A stretch of 64,000 nucleotides of DNA from Alphaproteobacteria bacterium. Lineage in GTDB: Bacteria > Pseudomonadota > Alphaproteobacteria > UBA7985 > JAUIBT01. This document shows, piece after piece, positions 39,094-56,588 of the stretch; the stretch's first letter is position 1, and each line of letters starts with the position of its first letter. A program made the position numbers and the translations under genes. The notes under the pieces were generated by a model. It made no database searches. It was not told where the DNA came from and saw only the letters and a list, made by a program, of their open reading frames with translations. The DNA is taken from NCBI GenBank assembly GCA_030428565.1, contig JAUIDR010000005.1, positions 1 through 64,000 of the forward strand, written 5' to 3'.

Positions 39094-39777
39094 ATGCGAG
39101 ACCAAGGCGCGACGCCCGAAAGCGAGGCTGCATACCGTTGACTCACGCTGCATTGCTATCGCTTTGGTGAACCTCGCAGTGAGCTGACCCTCGCCGCACC
39201 CAAGGGGCTGGAGTTCGCCAGGCTGTGCCCAAGTCTATGTCTTAATGAGGAGGGTTTTCCCACGTTGGCCGCGACCGCTTGGGGTGGGTTTGGCGTGCAC
39301 TATGATCGCGCAAGTGCCGAGGCGACGCTGGCGAACCCGCTAGGTTTGTCCCCTGCGTTGGGGGAGGCCGTGGAGAGCTGGCAGGCGCTCGCCTTGCCGG
39401 TCTCTCATGTCGGGGCGGTCACTGGTCCCATGGCTGTGCTGACGTCGGCAGGTTTCGATTCTCACGAGCCCGACCAGTTACCGCGTATTCGCCATTTCTT
39501 GCAGGGCATTGTTCAGGTGTTGGCTTTCTATACCCAAATGCCAGACAACCTTCGCCGTGATGTCTTTACCGGGCATGATATGAACGAAGGTTGTACCATG
39601 TCACTTTGGCCGGGTGAGAAGGCCATGATCCAAGCCGCCTATGGCAGCGGGCTCCATCGCGACTTGATGGACAAAAGCCGGGATGGTTCGACCTTTGATC
39701 GCAGTTCTTTTACGCGCGCCCTGCTGGTCGCGAGCCAGGGGAGTTGGGACGGCGACCCACTGGCTGGCTTGATGTAG
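39094..39777 (+). pseudogene. CrtA-like (spheroidene-monooxygenase-like) gene with in-frame TGA
   Basis: ATG 39094 has GAGG 5 nt upstream and reads 15 codons (MRDQGATPESEAAYR) into TGA at 39139. The same frame then continues open for 212 codons to TAG at 39777, starting LTLHCYRFGEP, which looks like the first strand of a ferredoxin-like fold. The track reports only the part from TTG 39265. The layout ESWQALALPVSHVGAVTG, TMSLWPGEKAMIQAAYG, HRDLM, FDRSSFTR and GSWDGDPL resembles CrtA-type proteins. I call it a pseudogene, with readthrough or sequence error as alternatives. The family call is moderate. Confidence 0.5.
39142..39183 (+). other. Potential stem-loop directly after the in-frame TGA
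   Basis: CTCA-cg-CTGC (39142-39151) can pair with GCAG-TGAG (39176-39183) around a loop of about 24 nt, starting on the first base after the TGA at 39139-39141. Such placement is seen for recoding elements, but GC-rich coding DNA often folds by chance. Confidence 0.35.
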
Positions 39778-39806: not shown

Positions 39807-41174
39807 CTAGGCCTCTGGCAGCGACTCTCGCCAATTCGTGACAATTTCGAAGCCATAGGTCTTGCACACGTCGTCGATCGGCAGAACCAGGGCCTCGCTA
39901 TCAGAAGCCGATACCAGCAAACCAACGATTTCAGGCTCGTCATCCTCGCTCCTTGGGCGCGTTACGACCAGGGCTCCGCTGTCCCCGGCGTCAGCAAATC
40001 GTTGGTTGTTGTTATCGACAATGACAGCGCGCGAGTAGAAGACCGAACCATGGAATTTGAGCGCTTGAGCGGAAGTCGGATAGACGGTGCCGCTGTATTC
40101 AATCAATTGGGACTGCTCCAATGCGCTGTCCGGGTCTTCTACAATGATTTTCGAAATTGCGGCCCGTGTGTGTCCTGTTGTACGCCCCCATTTTTGAACC
40201 CTGTCATTGGGCTTTAGCAAGTTTCGTTTGGGACTGCCGCTCGCTGCCGCCGCCTCGGATTGGTTCAAAGCTGCGTGAACGCTTGGCGTGTCATAGACCG
40301 GGGTGCTGGTCTGCTGCCCTGTTGCGGTGAACTCCGGGGCCCCTTGTTGTGAACTCAACAAGAAGGGCGGTCTAGTATCTGGTTCATGGCTCATACGAAT
40401 AAACTGGCTGAGGTTGAACCAAGACACATCTCGATTGCTGTTGTCCGAGACGCTAGCGGGGAGGCCCATGTTCATCTCTGCCGAGCCAGCATAGTTGCCG
40501 ACGAGCCGCACCGCTGAGGTACCGATACCAATATCCATAATTCCTGGCATGATAACCGGCAGGCCCCTTGGCGCGTGATTGCATCCGCCGATGACGTGGT
40601 TGCAGGTCAGGCCAAGAATATCGCCGACTTCGGCACCATTTGATTTGTGATAGAGGTCAAAGGCCGGGCCGTCGATCAGGCGAACAAGCAACCCCAGCGT
40701 TCCACAACTGCGCTCATTGGCTAGCGATAGGGACGAGCCGCAGCCAATAAACGGTAACGCAACACCTTCCTCGAAAAAAACATTGGTCGCCTTGGCGGTG
40801 GAGGGCGCAACGAGTTTTGTTACCTGCTTGTGTGGTTTTTCATAGGTGATTTCCAGCGTGACCGCACGCAGTTGCTCAACCGCCTTTCACGCTTTCTCCA
40901 GTTCACTGCGAAAGGCGGCATTGACGGGCAGGCGGGTGGTGGCCAGCAACGTTGCTGGCTTGCCTTCTCCGCCATCGAAACCCAGGGTTTCAAGTTTAAC
41001 AATGGGGGCAGCTTGAAAGCGGTTTAGCGCTGCGTCCGAAATCTCAAAGCGAAGATCTTGGAGTGCTTCGGTTTTGGGTGCTTCCAAGCTCGTCGGTAGT
41101 CGCAATATGCCCGCCGGTTGGGCCCAACCGGCAAAGGCGCGCCGATATTCGCTGGCGCTATGGAGTGGTGGCAT
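39807..41174 (-). pseudogene. NAL1-like trypsin-fold protease gene interrupted by in-frame TGA
   Basis: The track lists two minus-strand ORFs (95 aa from 41174; 294 aa from 40691), but they share one frame. ATG 41174 has AGAAGG upstream. TGA at 40889-40887 follows SELEKA, and the frame then stays open to 39807. The stretch before the track's TTG start (IGCGSSLSLANERSCGTLG) belongs to the protease fold, so 40691 is not the true start. The triad candidates are His in GLTCNHVIGG, Asp in NRDVSWFNL and Ser in DAGDSGALVV; KWGRTTGHT also fits the NAL1-like family. Full length would be about 455 residues. It is downstream of and probably co-transcribed with the lipase gene. GC is lower than the flanks. 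Confidence 0.7.
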
Positions 41175-41309
41175 GCATGTAGCCTTCTATTCGTTGGTTG
41201 ATCAGCGCGTTCACCGATGCGGTTTTACCCCGTGAGCCTTCGATGGATCGATCCCCGGATCTTTTACCGGTCTAAGGACCTGGCTGGGGTCGCGGTTGCC
41301 CGCGTGGCC

Positions 41310-42758
41310 TCAGTCGTCGTCCGGCGCTCCAAGCAGAACAAATTTCCGCTCTACAGTTTTTGTGCCCAAGCGTACGCTGATATTGTAGACACCCCACGGC
41401 TTCATGTCGGTTAAGTCGACCTCGTGTTCCACATCCCTGTGGCGCGTATTGGAGACAGTGATGGACCATTTCTTTTCGGTTCGACCGACGCTTGTATCTT
41501 CGGCTCCGCCGTCCTCCTCGCGGCCATCGACGGGCGCTATCCAGGCAAGCGTGAATTCAAGTTCGAGGGCGTTTTGAACCTCAGGAAAGACGACGCGGAC
41601 GCCAAATGGTTCATCACTTTGCGTAAAATCGCTCGCGACGAACAGCGCCATTTCTGAGATTTGGTTGCGAATGGCCTCGTCCAAATTGACCGCAGATACG
41701 GGCTGCATGGGCTGCCCTTCAGGCGGGAACAGGCGCTGCATTTCGGCTTTAAACCGAGCTGATTCGTGTAAGTCCTCATGCTTTCCGGTCACAATGAACC
41801 ATTCTTCAGCCCCACTGAGTGCGCTTAGTACAGAGACAGTTCCATCTCCCGATGAACGGGATTCTTGCACAATGATCTCGTCGCCAAAAAGCTTGATCTG
41901 ATCGAGGGTCGTTTTGCTGCTAGCGGCAAAATACATATACGCTGGAAGCCCCTCTTGTTCCCGATCGAGCGACCCCCAAAATTGCTCGACGTTTTCCCAC
42001 GCGTCGCTGGGGACTGGGGGGTGGAAGTGGTGCGCCAGTGCATCGTCGGTCATTGCCACCTCAACAATGTCTGGGCGGTCAGCAAAATATTGCCGAACAA
42101 AGCCTGTGCCGGGTCGTGGACCTAATTCGAGTGCGCCCGTGCGTGTGGCATCGCGGAGCAGTGCCGCTTGGCGCTTGGCGTTCAAAAAGAAGTGGAAGGG
42201 CATGGACCGGTTGATGCCAAGCAGGTTTGCCAGCAGCAGCGGTGAACCTTGGTGGGGAGTGCCTAAAAAGGCAACACGCTTGATTTGCTGACGAACACTT
42301 GTTTGCAGCCCATGGCTTTGGGCTTCCAAGCAGGATCGTGTGACAAGCCCGCCCATGGAATGGGGGATAATCGTAATGTCGTGGTGAGTGTTGGCGAAAT
42401 TTTTGTTGAGCCACTGCGCAAATAAGTGGGCGTTGACAGAATTCGATTGGCGCCAATCATAGGCAAACCAGCGAAACGACCGGTCTTGATCGTCAATGAT
42501 GTCATCATTTGTTTCTTGCCGGTCGTCAAAGCCAAGGACGGCAACGAAGTATCGCCGTAAATTTTCGTATATTTCCAGTGATATCAACGAAGTAGCCGGA
42601 TAGTGCCACAAGGGCTCGGCCTCATAGTATTCATTGGACCTCATGTTTTCTTCGAACGCGGTCTTGTTCGACCAATTGGCGGGCCAAACCCGCTTGCCGT
42701 CTTTGTCCAAGAGTGTTGAGCCAAGAATACCCGGCACAAAAATCACGACTTCTGACAT
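41310..42758 (-). CDS. LCAT-like alpha/beta-hydrolase with beta-rich C-terminal domain
   Basis: A 482-residue cytosolic hydrolase of the lecithin:cholesterol-acyltransferase type. VIFVPGILGSTLLDKDGKRVW opens the fold, IIPHSMGGLVTRSC carries the nucleophile Ser, and SSGDGTVSV and GKHEDLHES offer Asp and His. Residues from about 360 on form a separate beta-rich domain of unknown type. GGGAGG precedes ATG 42758. GC is low: the sample lines I counted give 29 of 60. The trypsin-like gene follows 135 bp downstream on the same strand. The pair may be a defence or lipid-acting module, but this is inference. Confidence 0.82.
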   Translation of the reverse strand: MSEVVIFVPGILGSTLLDKDGKRVWPANWSNKTAFEENMRSNEYYEAEPLWHYPATSLISLEIYENLRRYFVAVLGFDDRQETNDDIIDDQDRSFRWFAYDWRQSNSVNAHLFAQWLNKNFANTHHDITIIPHSMGGLVTRSCLEAQSHGLQTSVRQQIKRVAFLGTPHQGSPLLLANLLGINRSMPFHFFLNAKRQAALLRDATRTGALELGPRPGTGFVRQYFADRPDIVEVAMTDDALAHHFHPPVPSDAWENVEQFWGSLDREQEGLPAYMYFAASSKTTLDQIKLFGDEIIVQESRSSGDGTVSVLSALSGAEEWFIVTGKHEDLHESARFKAEMQRLFPPEGQPMQPVSAVNLDEAIRNQISEMALFVASDFTQSDEPFGVRVVFPEVQNALELEFTLAWIAPVDGREEDGGAEDTSVGRTEKKWSITVSNTRHRDVEHEVDLTDMKPWGVYNISVRLGTKTVERKFVLLGAPDDD

Positions 42759-54219: not shown

Positions 54220-55353
54220 CTAGTCCAGCTTAAGCTTGGCCTCTGAAAAGGTCATAGGGCTGCGCAGTCCAGGCTGTCCGCCCTGATCGATACGCATGCC
54301 GCGGTGTTGGAATTGCGGATCGCCAAAGACCTGCTCAACGCTGTTGATCGGCCCTGCGGGGACGCCTAGCTTCGCCAAGGCTTCCAGCAGCGGATCTCGC
54401 TGCCAGTCACTCAGCGCGGCTTCGATCAGCGGTACCAGCGCCGTTCGGTGCTCGACCCGGCCCTGGTTGCCCGCAAAGCGCGGGTCTTGGTGCCATTCTT
54501 GGCCCAACAACTCGGCGAGCTTGGCAAATTGGCTGTCATTGCCGCAGGCGATAATCAGATAGCCGTCGGCCACCGCAAAGACCTGATAGGGCACAATGTT
54601 GGGATGGGCATTGCCCAAGCGCTTGGGGCTGACGCCCGAGGCTAGATAGTTCAAAGCTTGGTTGGCCAGCACCCCGGTCATGCAGTCGAACAGCGCCATG
54701 TCGATATGTTGCCCGCGCCCCGTGCGGCTGCGCATCTGAAGCGCGGCCTGAATGGCAATCACGCTGTAGAGTCCGGTAAAGATATCGGCAAAGGCCACGC
54801 CCATTTTTTGCGGTGCACCGTCCGGCTCGCCTGTCAGGTCCATGATCCCAGCCATGCCTTGGATCATGAAATCATAGCCCGCGCGCGGGGCGTAGGGGCC
54901 GTCTTGACCAAAGCCGGTAATGGAACAATAGACCAGCGCCGGATTGAGCGCCGCCAAGCTGGTGTAGTCGAGGCCGAATTTGGCCAGGCCGCCGACCTTG
55001 AAATTTTCAATGACAACATCGGCGTCGGCAATCAGCGCTTTGACCTGCGCCAAGTCGTTTGGGTCTTTCAAGTCGGCATGCACGACGCGTTTGCCACGAT
55101 TGCAAGAAAAGTAATAGGCCGCCGTCTTGTCGCTGGTGGACTTGGGATCGTCCAAAAAGGGCGGTCCCCAACCCCTTGTATCGTCGCCCGCTGGGCTCTC
55201 GACCTTGATGACCTCGGCGCCGAGATCGGCCAGGGTCTGGCCCGCCCAAGGACCGGCAAGAATGCGCGCCAACTCGACAACCTTGACGCCTTCAAGCGGG
55301 TAGGGTGCGGCTGGATCGCTGGGGCTCCAGTCGGTTGAATTAAGCGCCGTCAC
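54220..55353 (-). CDS. CaiB/BaiF family III CoA-transferase
   Basis: A 377-residue family III CoA-transferase, moving CoA between carboxylic acids. GVKVVELARILAGPWAGQTLADLGAEVIKVE is the standard N-terminus. The catalytic Asp lies in the RAGYDFMIQGMAGIMDLTGEP region. The start is GTG at 55353, overlapping the aminotransferase stop (GTGA), so they are translationally coupled and probably work in one pathway. Confidence 0.9.
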   Translation of the reverse strand: MTALNSTDWSPSDPAAPYPLEGVKVVELARILAGPWAGQTLADLGAEVIKVESPAGDDTRGWGPPFLDDPKSTSDKTAAYYFSCNRGKRVVHADLKDPNDLAQVKALIADADVVIENFKVGGLAKFGLDYTSLAALNPALVYCSITGFGQDGPYAPRAGYDFMIQGMAGIMDLTGEPDGAPQKMGVAFADIFTGLYSVIAIQAALQMRSRTGRGQHIDMALFDCMTGVLANQALNYLASGVSPKRLGNAHPNIVPYQVFAVADGYLIIACGNDSQFAKLAELLGQEWHQDPRFAGNQGRVEHRTALVPLIEAALSDWQRDPLLEALAKLGVPAGPINSVEQVFGDPQFQHRGMRIDQGGQPGLRSPMTFSEAKLKLD

Positions 55354-56588
55354 AGGCTGGCCTCCAAGCCTTCGATCAGCGCCTTGATCTCAGCGGGGCT
55401 GTTGTAGTGGACGAGCGACAAGCGGGTCACGCCCTTATCTGCGCCGATGCCCAAATGGTCCAGCAGGCGGGCGGCGTAGAAGTGGCCCGAGCCCGCGCAC
55501 AAACCTCGCGCGCCCAAGTCTGCGGCTAGCTGCCACGCGCCCTTGTTGTGCGGAGCAAAGCCAATCGTGCCGTGGCGCCCATCGGCGTCGCTTTGCCCAA
55601 CCAGCCGCAGATCATTTCGATGCGATAGGAAGTCCAACAAAGGACGGCGCAATTCGGCCTCGTGCGCGGCCCAGAGCGCATTGACCCGCGCCACCGCGCC
55701 ATCGCCGAGCGAACCGGAGCCGCCGTGGTGGCGATCCAGGGCCTCGATATAATCCAACACGCCCTGCGCGCTGGCCTCTTGCGCATGATCGGGTCCGGCC
55801 GGGGTCAGGCGTTTATTGATTAACTCAGCGTTGAAATAGTGGCCTTGGTTCGGCAGTGCTTCCAGCAGCCAACGCCGCACCGCCATCAGCCCCTGGTGAA
55901 CCGAATAGACTTTGTAGAGGCTAAACAGATAGATATCGCAGCCCAGAGCGCCAACGTCCGGGATCGCGTGCGGCGCGTGACTGACGCCATCGACGACGAC
56001 AATGGCCTTCGGCGCCGCGGCCTTAATCAGGCGTGTCCATTCGGCGACGGGGTTGACCTGGCCAACGATGTTCGAGCAGTGCGGCAGGCAGACCAAGCCC
56101 GTCTTTTCGCTCAGGCGGTCGATGAGGCCCTGGGTGTCCAACAGGCCGCTCTGCGGATCGCTTTGCCATTCGTGCAGGGGTAGGCCGCGCTTTTCGGCCA
56201 TACGACGCACGGCACCGGTGTTGGCTTCGTGGTCCTGGTTGGTGACAATGACTTCGGCGCCGTCGGGCAGATAGTCGCCAAAGGTGTGCGCCAGGATATA
56301 GGTGTTGGCAGTGGTCGAAGGCCCGAATTGCACCTCCTCGGTCTCTAAGCCCAAAGCTACGGCCCAGCGTTCGCGCGATTGATCCATCAGCGCGATGGCT
56401 TCCATGGCCGCCTTGTGGGGGTGCTTGGGTTGCACCTTGCAGTGGGTATAATAGTGGGTCAGGCGCTCGATCGTTGGCTTGCAGGCATAAGACCCACCAG
56501 CGTTTTCGAAAAAGGCTTGGTCTTGCCGGTCGGCTTGCTGGAAGGCCGGGAATTGAGCGCGAACGAAATCAAGGTCTAAGGTGGCCAT
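55350..56588 (-). CDS. Class V aminotransferase-fold PLP enzyme
   Basis: A 412-residue PLP enzyme related to cysteine desulfurases and kynureninases. FENAGGSYACKPTIERL, VTNQDHEANTGAVRRM, VDGVSHAPHAIPDVGALGCDIYLFSLYKVYSVHQG (the last part with the presumed PLP Lys) and GLCAGSGHFYA fit the fold. The Lys context YK differs from the common HK of SufS. Coupling with a CoA-transferase suggests catabolism of an amino acid or similar compound rather than Fe-S assembly. AGGA precedes ATG 56588. Confidence 0.87.
   Translation of the reverse strand: MATLDLDFVRAQFPAFQQADRQDQAFFENAGGSYACKPTIERLTHYYTHCKVQPKHPHKAAMEAIALMDQSRERWAVALGLETEEVQFGPSTTANTYILAHTFGDYLPDGAEVIVTNQDHEANTGAVRRMAEKRGLPLHEWQSDPQSGLLDTQGLIDRLSEKTGLVCLPHCSNIVGQVNPVAEWTRLIKAAAPKAIVVVDGVSHAPHAIPDVGALGCDIYLFSLYKVYSVHQGLMAVRRWLLEALPNQGHYFNAELINKRLTPAGPDHAQEASAQGVLDYIEALDRHHGGSGSLGDGAVARVNALWAAHEAELRRPLLDFLSHRNDLRLVGQSDADGRHGTIGFAPHNKGAWQLAADLGARGLCAGSGHFYAARLLDHLGIGADKGVTRLSLVHYNSPAEIKALIEGLEASL

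What the first reader, a model, noticed from the sequence alone, without database searches (positions are those of the whole stretch)
39807..42758. LCAT-like lipase plus NAL1-like protease: candidate undescribed two-gene system
A lower-GC island between the SRAP gene and rlmE carries a cytosolic LCAT-like lipase with a beta-rich C-terminal domain, followed by a trypsin-fold protease. Lipases that attack membranes and trypsin-like proteases that activate effectors are both known parts of bacterial conflict systems. A protease-triggered lipase would be a sensible abortive-infection design. Both proteins lack export signals. I do not know this pair as a named system.
Basis: inference. Interest (0 to 1): 0.68.

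Follow-up and report, generated by a model that had tools for sequence, protein, structure and literature searches.

The report
Conserved lipase–protease gene pair, protease interrupted
Two bacterial genes, one for a fat-cutting enzyme that looks able to attack the cell's own membrane and one for a protein-cutting enzyme related to a plant protein, travel together in distant bacteria, which suggests the second switches on the first; in this genome the second gene carries a stop codon.

Summary
Window 41310-42758(-) encodes an intact 482-aa LCAT/group XV phospholipase A2-like enzyme with a Ser-Asp-His triad. 39807-41174(-) encodes a NAL1-like trypsin-fold protease whose frame is broken by one TGA at codon 96.

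The pair is a real unit. All six close protease relatives found (window, an Arenicella MAG, four other gammaproteobacterial genomes) lie directly downstream of a lipase of the same clade; the five outside the window are intact. Wider lipase relatives sit beside or are fused to other proteases: CHAT, caspase-VMAP, Trypsin_2. The site between SRAP and rlmE is variable: a sister species carries a subtilisin there.

The most likely mechanism is proteolytic control, probably activation, of an intracellular phospholipase that damages the membrane, like protease-gasdermin and protease-nuclease pairs. Activation and a defence role are inferred. In Arenicella-type genomes the pair sits at one fixed chromosomal locus beside an ABC transporter, not in a defence island, so a physiological role remains open. 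No named system matches, but α/β-hydrolase-caspase pairing and phospholipase effectors in CARD-NLR systems are published: a new variant of a known kind.

The parts
41310..42758 (-). LCAT / group XV phospholipase A2-like lipase, 482 aa, intact; catalytic Ser134 (HSMGG), Asp305 (GDGT), His327; beta-rich C-terminal region from about residue 385
   Evidence: PLA2G15 profile match 7.7e-14, Foldseek best hits lysosomal phospholipase A2 4.4e-9, triad invariant in the relatives aligned
39807..41174 (-). NAL1-like trypsin-fold protease, 455 codons, interrupted by one TGA at codon 96; catalytic His193, Asp249, Ser399 all encoded after the TGA
   Evidence: family profile matches NARROW LEAF 1 structures at 2.5e-13; triad invariant in relatives
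40887..40889 (-). in-frame TGA in the protease gene (no stop in any of the five close relatives)
41175..41309 (-). intergenic gap lipase-protease with a GAAGG ribosome-binding-like motif 8 nt before the protease ATG; in relatives the gap is 6-29 nt, or an 11-nt overlap

Best explanation
It is a two-gene unit made of an intracellular LCAT/PLA2G15-type phospholipase (acyl-ester hydrolase) and a NAL1-like trypsin-fold protease encoded just downstream. Shown by sequence: the fold assignments, the intact catalytic triads, the conserved pairing and gene order, and the TGA. Inferred: the lipase is held in a low-activity form until the protease cuts it, probably in the linker before the C-terminal beta domain (residues about 350-383, the least confident part of the model). 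The freed enzyme then hydrolyses membrane phospholipids and stops or kills the cell. The trigger is unknown; infection or envelope stress is most likely. In this genome the protease is interrupted, so the unit is probably silent or being lost, unless the TGA is an assembly error or is read through.
For: The lipase matches group XV phospholipase A2 and LCAT by profile (7.7e-14) and by fold (4.4e-9), with the triad aligned. The protease family matches NAL1 (2.5e-13), with H193, D249 and S399 invariant. In six of six close protease relatives the clade lipase (364-566 bits to the A4 profile outside the window) lies directly upstream on the same strand; outside the window the spacing runs from an 11-nt overlap to a 29-nt gap. 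The pair occurs in three unrelated contexts: SRAP/rlmE; ABC transporter/SixA; and G793. Lipase relatives pair with other proteases: CHAT-X-lipase in three lineages; caspase fused to VMAP-C next to the lipase; Trypsin_2 adjacent or fused; CHAT fused. The published precedent HamM is a proenzyme cut by its partner trypsin, and its authors predict other enzyme classes (PMC12799240). An intact lipase beside a broken protease fits an activating protease better than a restraining one.
Against: No activation, toxicity or defence experiment exists. In L011, G994, G1086 and G886 the pair sits at one conserved chromosomal locus beside an ABC transporter, which is unlike a sporadic defence gene. PADLOC and the window neighbours give no defence link. 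The window lipase is on a long branch (2.8) and does not group with the other paired lipases, although one origin is not rejected (p-AU 0.22). The protease model failed (pLDDT 35) and the lipase model is too shallow to show a gated active site.
Confidence: 0.5

Rival explanations
1. A physiological lipid-remodelling or envelope-maintenance operon. The lipase trims or transacylates phospholipids, the protease adjusts its level, and the unit works with the neighbouring ABC transporter in Arenicella-type bacteria; no immunity is involved.
For: Four genomes keep ABC ATPase-permease-lipase-protease in the same order, three of them with SixA directly after. No defence genes lie nearby there or in the window.
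Against: The pair occurs without the transporter in the window and in G793. It is rare (4 of 360 sampled gammaproteobacteria, 1 of 385 alphaproteobacteria). Lipase relatives sit with CHAT, caspase-VMAP, NACHT and Pycsar-type genes.
Confidence: 0.25
2. The protease is a restraint rather than an activator: it degrades the lipase or holds it inactive, in the manner of a toxin-antitoxin pair.
For: Tight two-gene arrangement with conserved order.
Against: Here the protease is interrupted while the lipase stays intact, which a harmful unrestrained lipase would not allow, provided the TGA is real. The catalytic triad is kept in all intact copies. The biochemically studied protease-nuclease pairs work by activation (PMC12799240).
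Confidence: 0.12
3. The locus is a decaying acquired island with no present function, and the two genes lie together here only by inheritance.
For: TGA in the protease, lower GC, a wider 135-nt gap, a long lipase branch (2.8), and a nearby fragment of a spheroidene monooxygenase-like gene at 39265-39774.
Against: The lipase is fully open with its triad, and the 359 codons after the TGA have no further stop or frameshift. It does not explain conservation of the pair elsewhere.
Confidence: 0.13

Closest known systems
Caspase + alpha/beta-hydrolase pairing in VMAP ternary conflict systems (Kaur et al. 2020, PMC7159879)
   Same: An intracellular alpha/beta-hydrolase gene always beside a peptidase. 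One lipase of the present clade (L142, genome G577) sits directly beside a caspase fused to VMAP-C, so the hydrolases may be the same family.
   Different: No VMAP, vWA or MoxR gene was found beside the window pair or the five other pairs; the peptidase is NAL1-like, not a caspase.
Nuclease-protease pairs of Hachiman/AVAST (HamM) and caspase-nuclease canu loci (Tuck et al. 2025, PMC12799240)
   Same: Enzyme-protease pair, effector gene upstream in the trypsin systems, protease family exchangeable between trypsin and caspase types.
   Different: The effector is a phospholipase-like hydrolase instead of an MBL nuclease; the protease stands alone; proteolytic activation is not shown here.
Bacterial gasdermin and CARD-NLR systems, including variants with phospholipase effectors and trypsin-like peptidases (as summarised in PMC13236601)
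   Same: Protease plus membrane-attacking effector.
   Different: No gasdermin, CARD or NLR/STAND gene was found beside the paired genes.
Group XV phospholipase A2 / LCAT (PDB 4x90 and others)
   Same: Fold and S-D-H triad.
   Different: Cytosolic, no signal peptide, about 17% identity, extra C-terminal beta domain.
NARROW LEAF 1 (NAL1) peptidase of plants
   Same: Nearly whole-length profile match and H-D-S triad.
   Different: Bacterial, paired with a lipase, its own N-terminal region.

Membership tests
LCAT / PLA2G15 lipase fold | nucleophile elbow with S-D-H triad and profile or fold match | tested here: met
NAL1-like trypsin-fold peptidase | H-D-S triad and full-length profile match to NAL1 | tested here: met
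   single-sequence Pfam score stays below the Nal1_C cut-off
NAL1-like trypsin-fold peptidase | uninterrupted reading frame in this genome | tested here: not met
   one TGA at codon 96; intact in five relatives
VMAP ternary conflict system | VMAP-C, vWA and MoxR genes beside the peptidase/hydrolase | tested here: not met
   not among the window neighbours scanned with Pfam; VMAP-C found only beside the clade member L142
Bacterial gasdermin / CARD-NLR system | gasdermin or replacement effector plus STAND/NLR ATPase and CARD-bearing protease | tested here: not met
   no STAND/NLR or gasdermin match in the neighbours scanned; a phospholipase-type effector is present
Proteolytically activated effector-protease pair (HamM type) | conserved co-occurrence of effector and protease | tested here: met
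   six of six
Proteolytically activated effector-protease pair (HamM type) | effector is a proenzyme cut and activated by the partner | not testable with these tools
   needs biochemistry
Proteolytically activated effector-protease pair (HamM type) | effector is an MBL-fold nuclease | tested here: not met
   alpha/beta-hydrolase
Known anti-phage systems in PADLOC | match to a system model | tested here: not met
   only weak partial matches

The most novel reading that the evidence does not exclude
A minimal, stand-alone pro-phospholipase/protease suicide unit without NLR, CARD or nucleotide signalling, in which a NAL1-like protease itself senses the trigger and unleashes a cytosolic LCAT-type phospholipase on the inner membrane: a lipase counterpart of protease-gasdermin and protease-nuclease pairs.
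Probability: 0.35. Interest if true: 0.75.

Novelty: new variant of a known kind. Interest (0 to 1): 0.57.

Why it matters
Tuck et al. [quoted passage not shown] This pair is a concrete candidate: a phospholipase-like enzyme conserved with a protease across distant proteobacteria, with lipase relatives coupled to several different protease folds. It also gives a bacterial setting for NAL1-like proteases, known mainly from plant growth genes, and intact two-gene copies that can be tested directly.

Tried and rejected
1. P0002 alone in genome contigs found nothing; an alignment was needed.
2. P0001 alone in plasmids found nothing, and in 385 alphaproteobacteria only itself.
3. Phage and viral collections: no match for either protein in phages; the protease has no viral-contig relative; viral lipase hits are distant. 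A phage-borne origin is not supported.
4. Protease structure prediction failed (pLDDT 35, two sequences), so no fold search was run with it.
5. I first thought NAL1-paired lipases should be monophyletic; the tree leaves the window lipase outside on a long branch, with one origin not rejected.
6. A Fisher test of protease proximity for the clade against other LCATs gave p = 1.6e-5 within 4 kb and 1.2e-3 within 1 kb. It is indicative only: some of the protease profiles were built from these same neighbours and the table was compiled by hand.
7. The sister species' subtilisin is not a relative of the window protease.

Full report
OBSERVATION. The lipase is intact (482 aa). The protease frame (455 codons, ATG at 41174) holds one in-frame TGA at codon 96. 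No usable start follows before TTG at 40691, so a restart would lose the N-terminal domain and the first strand of the protease domain. The stretch is lower in GC and third-position GC is 0.56-0.62 against 0.73-0.77 in neighbouring genes.

WHAT THE PROTEINS ARE. The lipase matches LCAT, PGAP1 and DUF7379 in Pfam above their cut-offs. As a nine-sequence profile it matches group XV phospholipase A2 at 7.7e-14 and LCAT at 3.3e-9. The predicted structure, confident only in its core (mean pLDDT 62), finds lysosomal phospholipase A2 first (4.4e-9) and also the propeptide form of BlEst2 lipase (2.5e-6). Ser134, Asp305 and His327 are invariant across the relatives aligned. The protease is weak as a single sequence, but its family profile matches NARROW LEAF 1 structures over nearly its whole length (2.5e-13), and His193, Asp249 and Ser399 are invariant. 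Neither has an export signal by inspection.

THE PAIR IS CONSERVED. A profile scan of species genomes found an Arenicella MAG (L011) whose lipase is followed 12 nt later by an intact relative of the window protease (1.2e-31, 34% identity). A protease-profile search of 360 gammaproteobacterial genomes found four more strong relatives, all without stops. Each lies directly downstream of a lipase of the same clade: 29, 28 and 6 nt apart, and one 11-nt overlap. With the window that makes six of six. In L011, G994 and G1086 the order is ABC ATPase, permease, lipase, protease, SixA; G886 shares the ABC-lipase-protease part. G793 and the window have other neighbours, so the pair also moves as a unit.

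THE LIPASE KEEPS COMPANY WITH PROTEASES. On the A4 profile the lipase clade is separated from other LCATs (299 bits or more against 128 or less) and is supported 98/99 and 100/100 in two trees. Outside the NAL1 pairs its members sit in CHAT-X-lipase cassettes (Acidobacteria MAG, Bradyrhizobium, Gluconobacter plasmid), beside a caspase fused to VMAP-C (G577), and with an HExxH-motif protein and an MBL protein on Rhizobium plasmids, with trypsin, S8 or nuclease genes nearby. One member, on a Skermanella plasmid, has no recognised protease. More distant LCATs are fused to CHAT (15 loci by my profile, four checked with Pfam) or to Trypsin_2, or lie beside CHAT, trypsin, NACHT/AAA or a TIR/cNMP-binding Pycsar-type effector.

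THE SITE. In sister species G002 the interval between SRAP and rlmE holds one subtilisin-family protease instead; neither G002 nor G001 has the lipase. The site is therefore variable within the genus. The window itself shows no defence neighbours.

MECHANISM. I favour proteolytic activation of a phospholipase. The grounds are the pairing, the exchangeability of the protease, the kept triads, the precedent of HamM, and the survival here of an intact lipase beside a broken protease. The activation step, the cleavage site, membrane damage and any defence role are inference. The fixed locus beside an ABC transporter in the Arenicella-type genomes keeps a physiological role alive.

KNOWN OR NEW. 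Alpha/beta-hydrolase genes beside caspase peptidases in VMAP systems were noted in 2020 (PMC7159879), hydrolases fused to bacterial Death-like domains in 2021 (PMC8195603), and phospholipase effectors in CARD-NLR systems are cited in PMC13236601. I found no description of an LCAT-type lipase with a NAL1-like protease in the library searched, which lacks most subscription journals. I therefore class it as a new variant of a known kind.

Noticed in passing
window 39265-39774 (+): Fragment matching the C-terminal part of the spheroidene monooxygenase model (1.9e-6, far below cut-off): a likely gene remnant next to the island.
   Followed up: partly
L158 7568-9385 (genome G002): The sister species carries a 605-aa subtilisin-family (S8) protease between SRAP and rlmE, exactly where the window has the lipase-protease pair: a variable site.
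   Followed up: partly
L053, L015, L056, L101 and 11 more loci: LCAT-like hydrolase fused to a CHAT protease domain in single proteins of 1000-2050 aa, in Pseudomonas, Accumulibacter, Mycolicibacterium, Aquimarina and others.
   Followed up: partly
L012 6029-9320, L013 5928-9380, L003 6152-9380: Three-gene cassette CHAT - X - lipase in three lineages; X is 255-303 aa with no Pfam match.
   Followed up: partly
L008, L010, L143, L144: LCAT-like proteins, at least three with signal-peptide-like N-termini, directly followed by a trypsin-like protease gene in Rhizobiales: a second lipase-trypsin pairing, apparently periplasmic.
   Followed up: no
L106 6665-9263: On a Rhizobium leguminosarum plasmid a NAL1-like protease sits near a phospholipase D-like gene, another protease-lipid enzyme neighbourhood.
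   Followed up: no
L011, L173, L174, L175: ABC ATPase and permease directly upstream of the lipase-protease pair in four genomes, with a SixA-like phosphatase directly downstream in three of them.
   Followed up: partly
window 55353-56588 (-): Cysteine-desulfurase-like protein that hits SspA/DndA models in PADLOC; probably an ordinary desulfurase.
   Followed up: no
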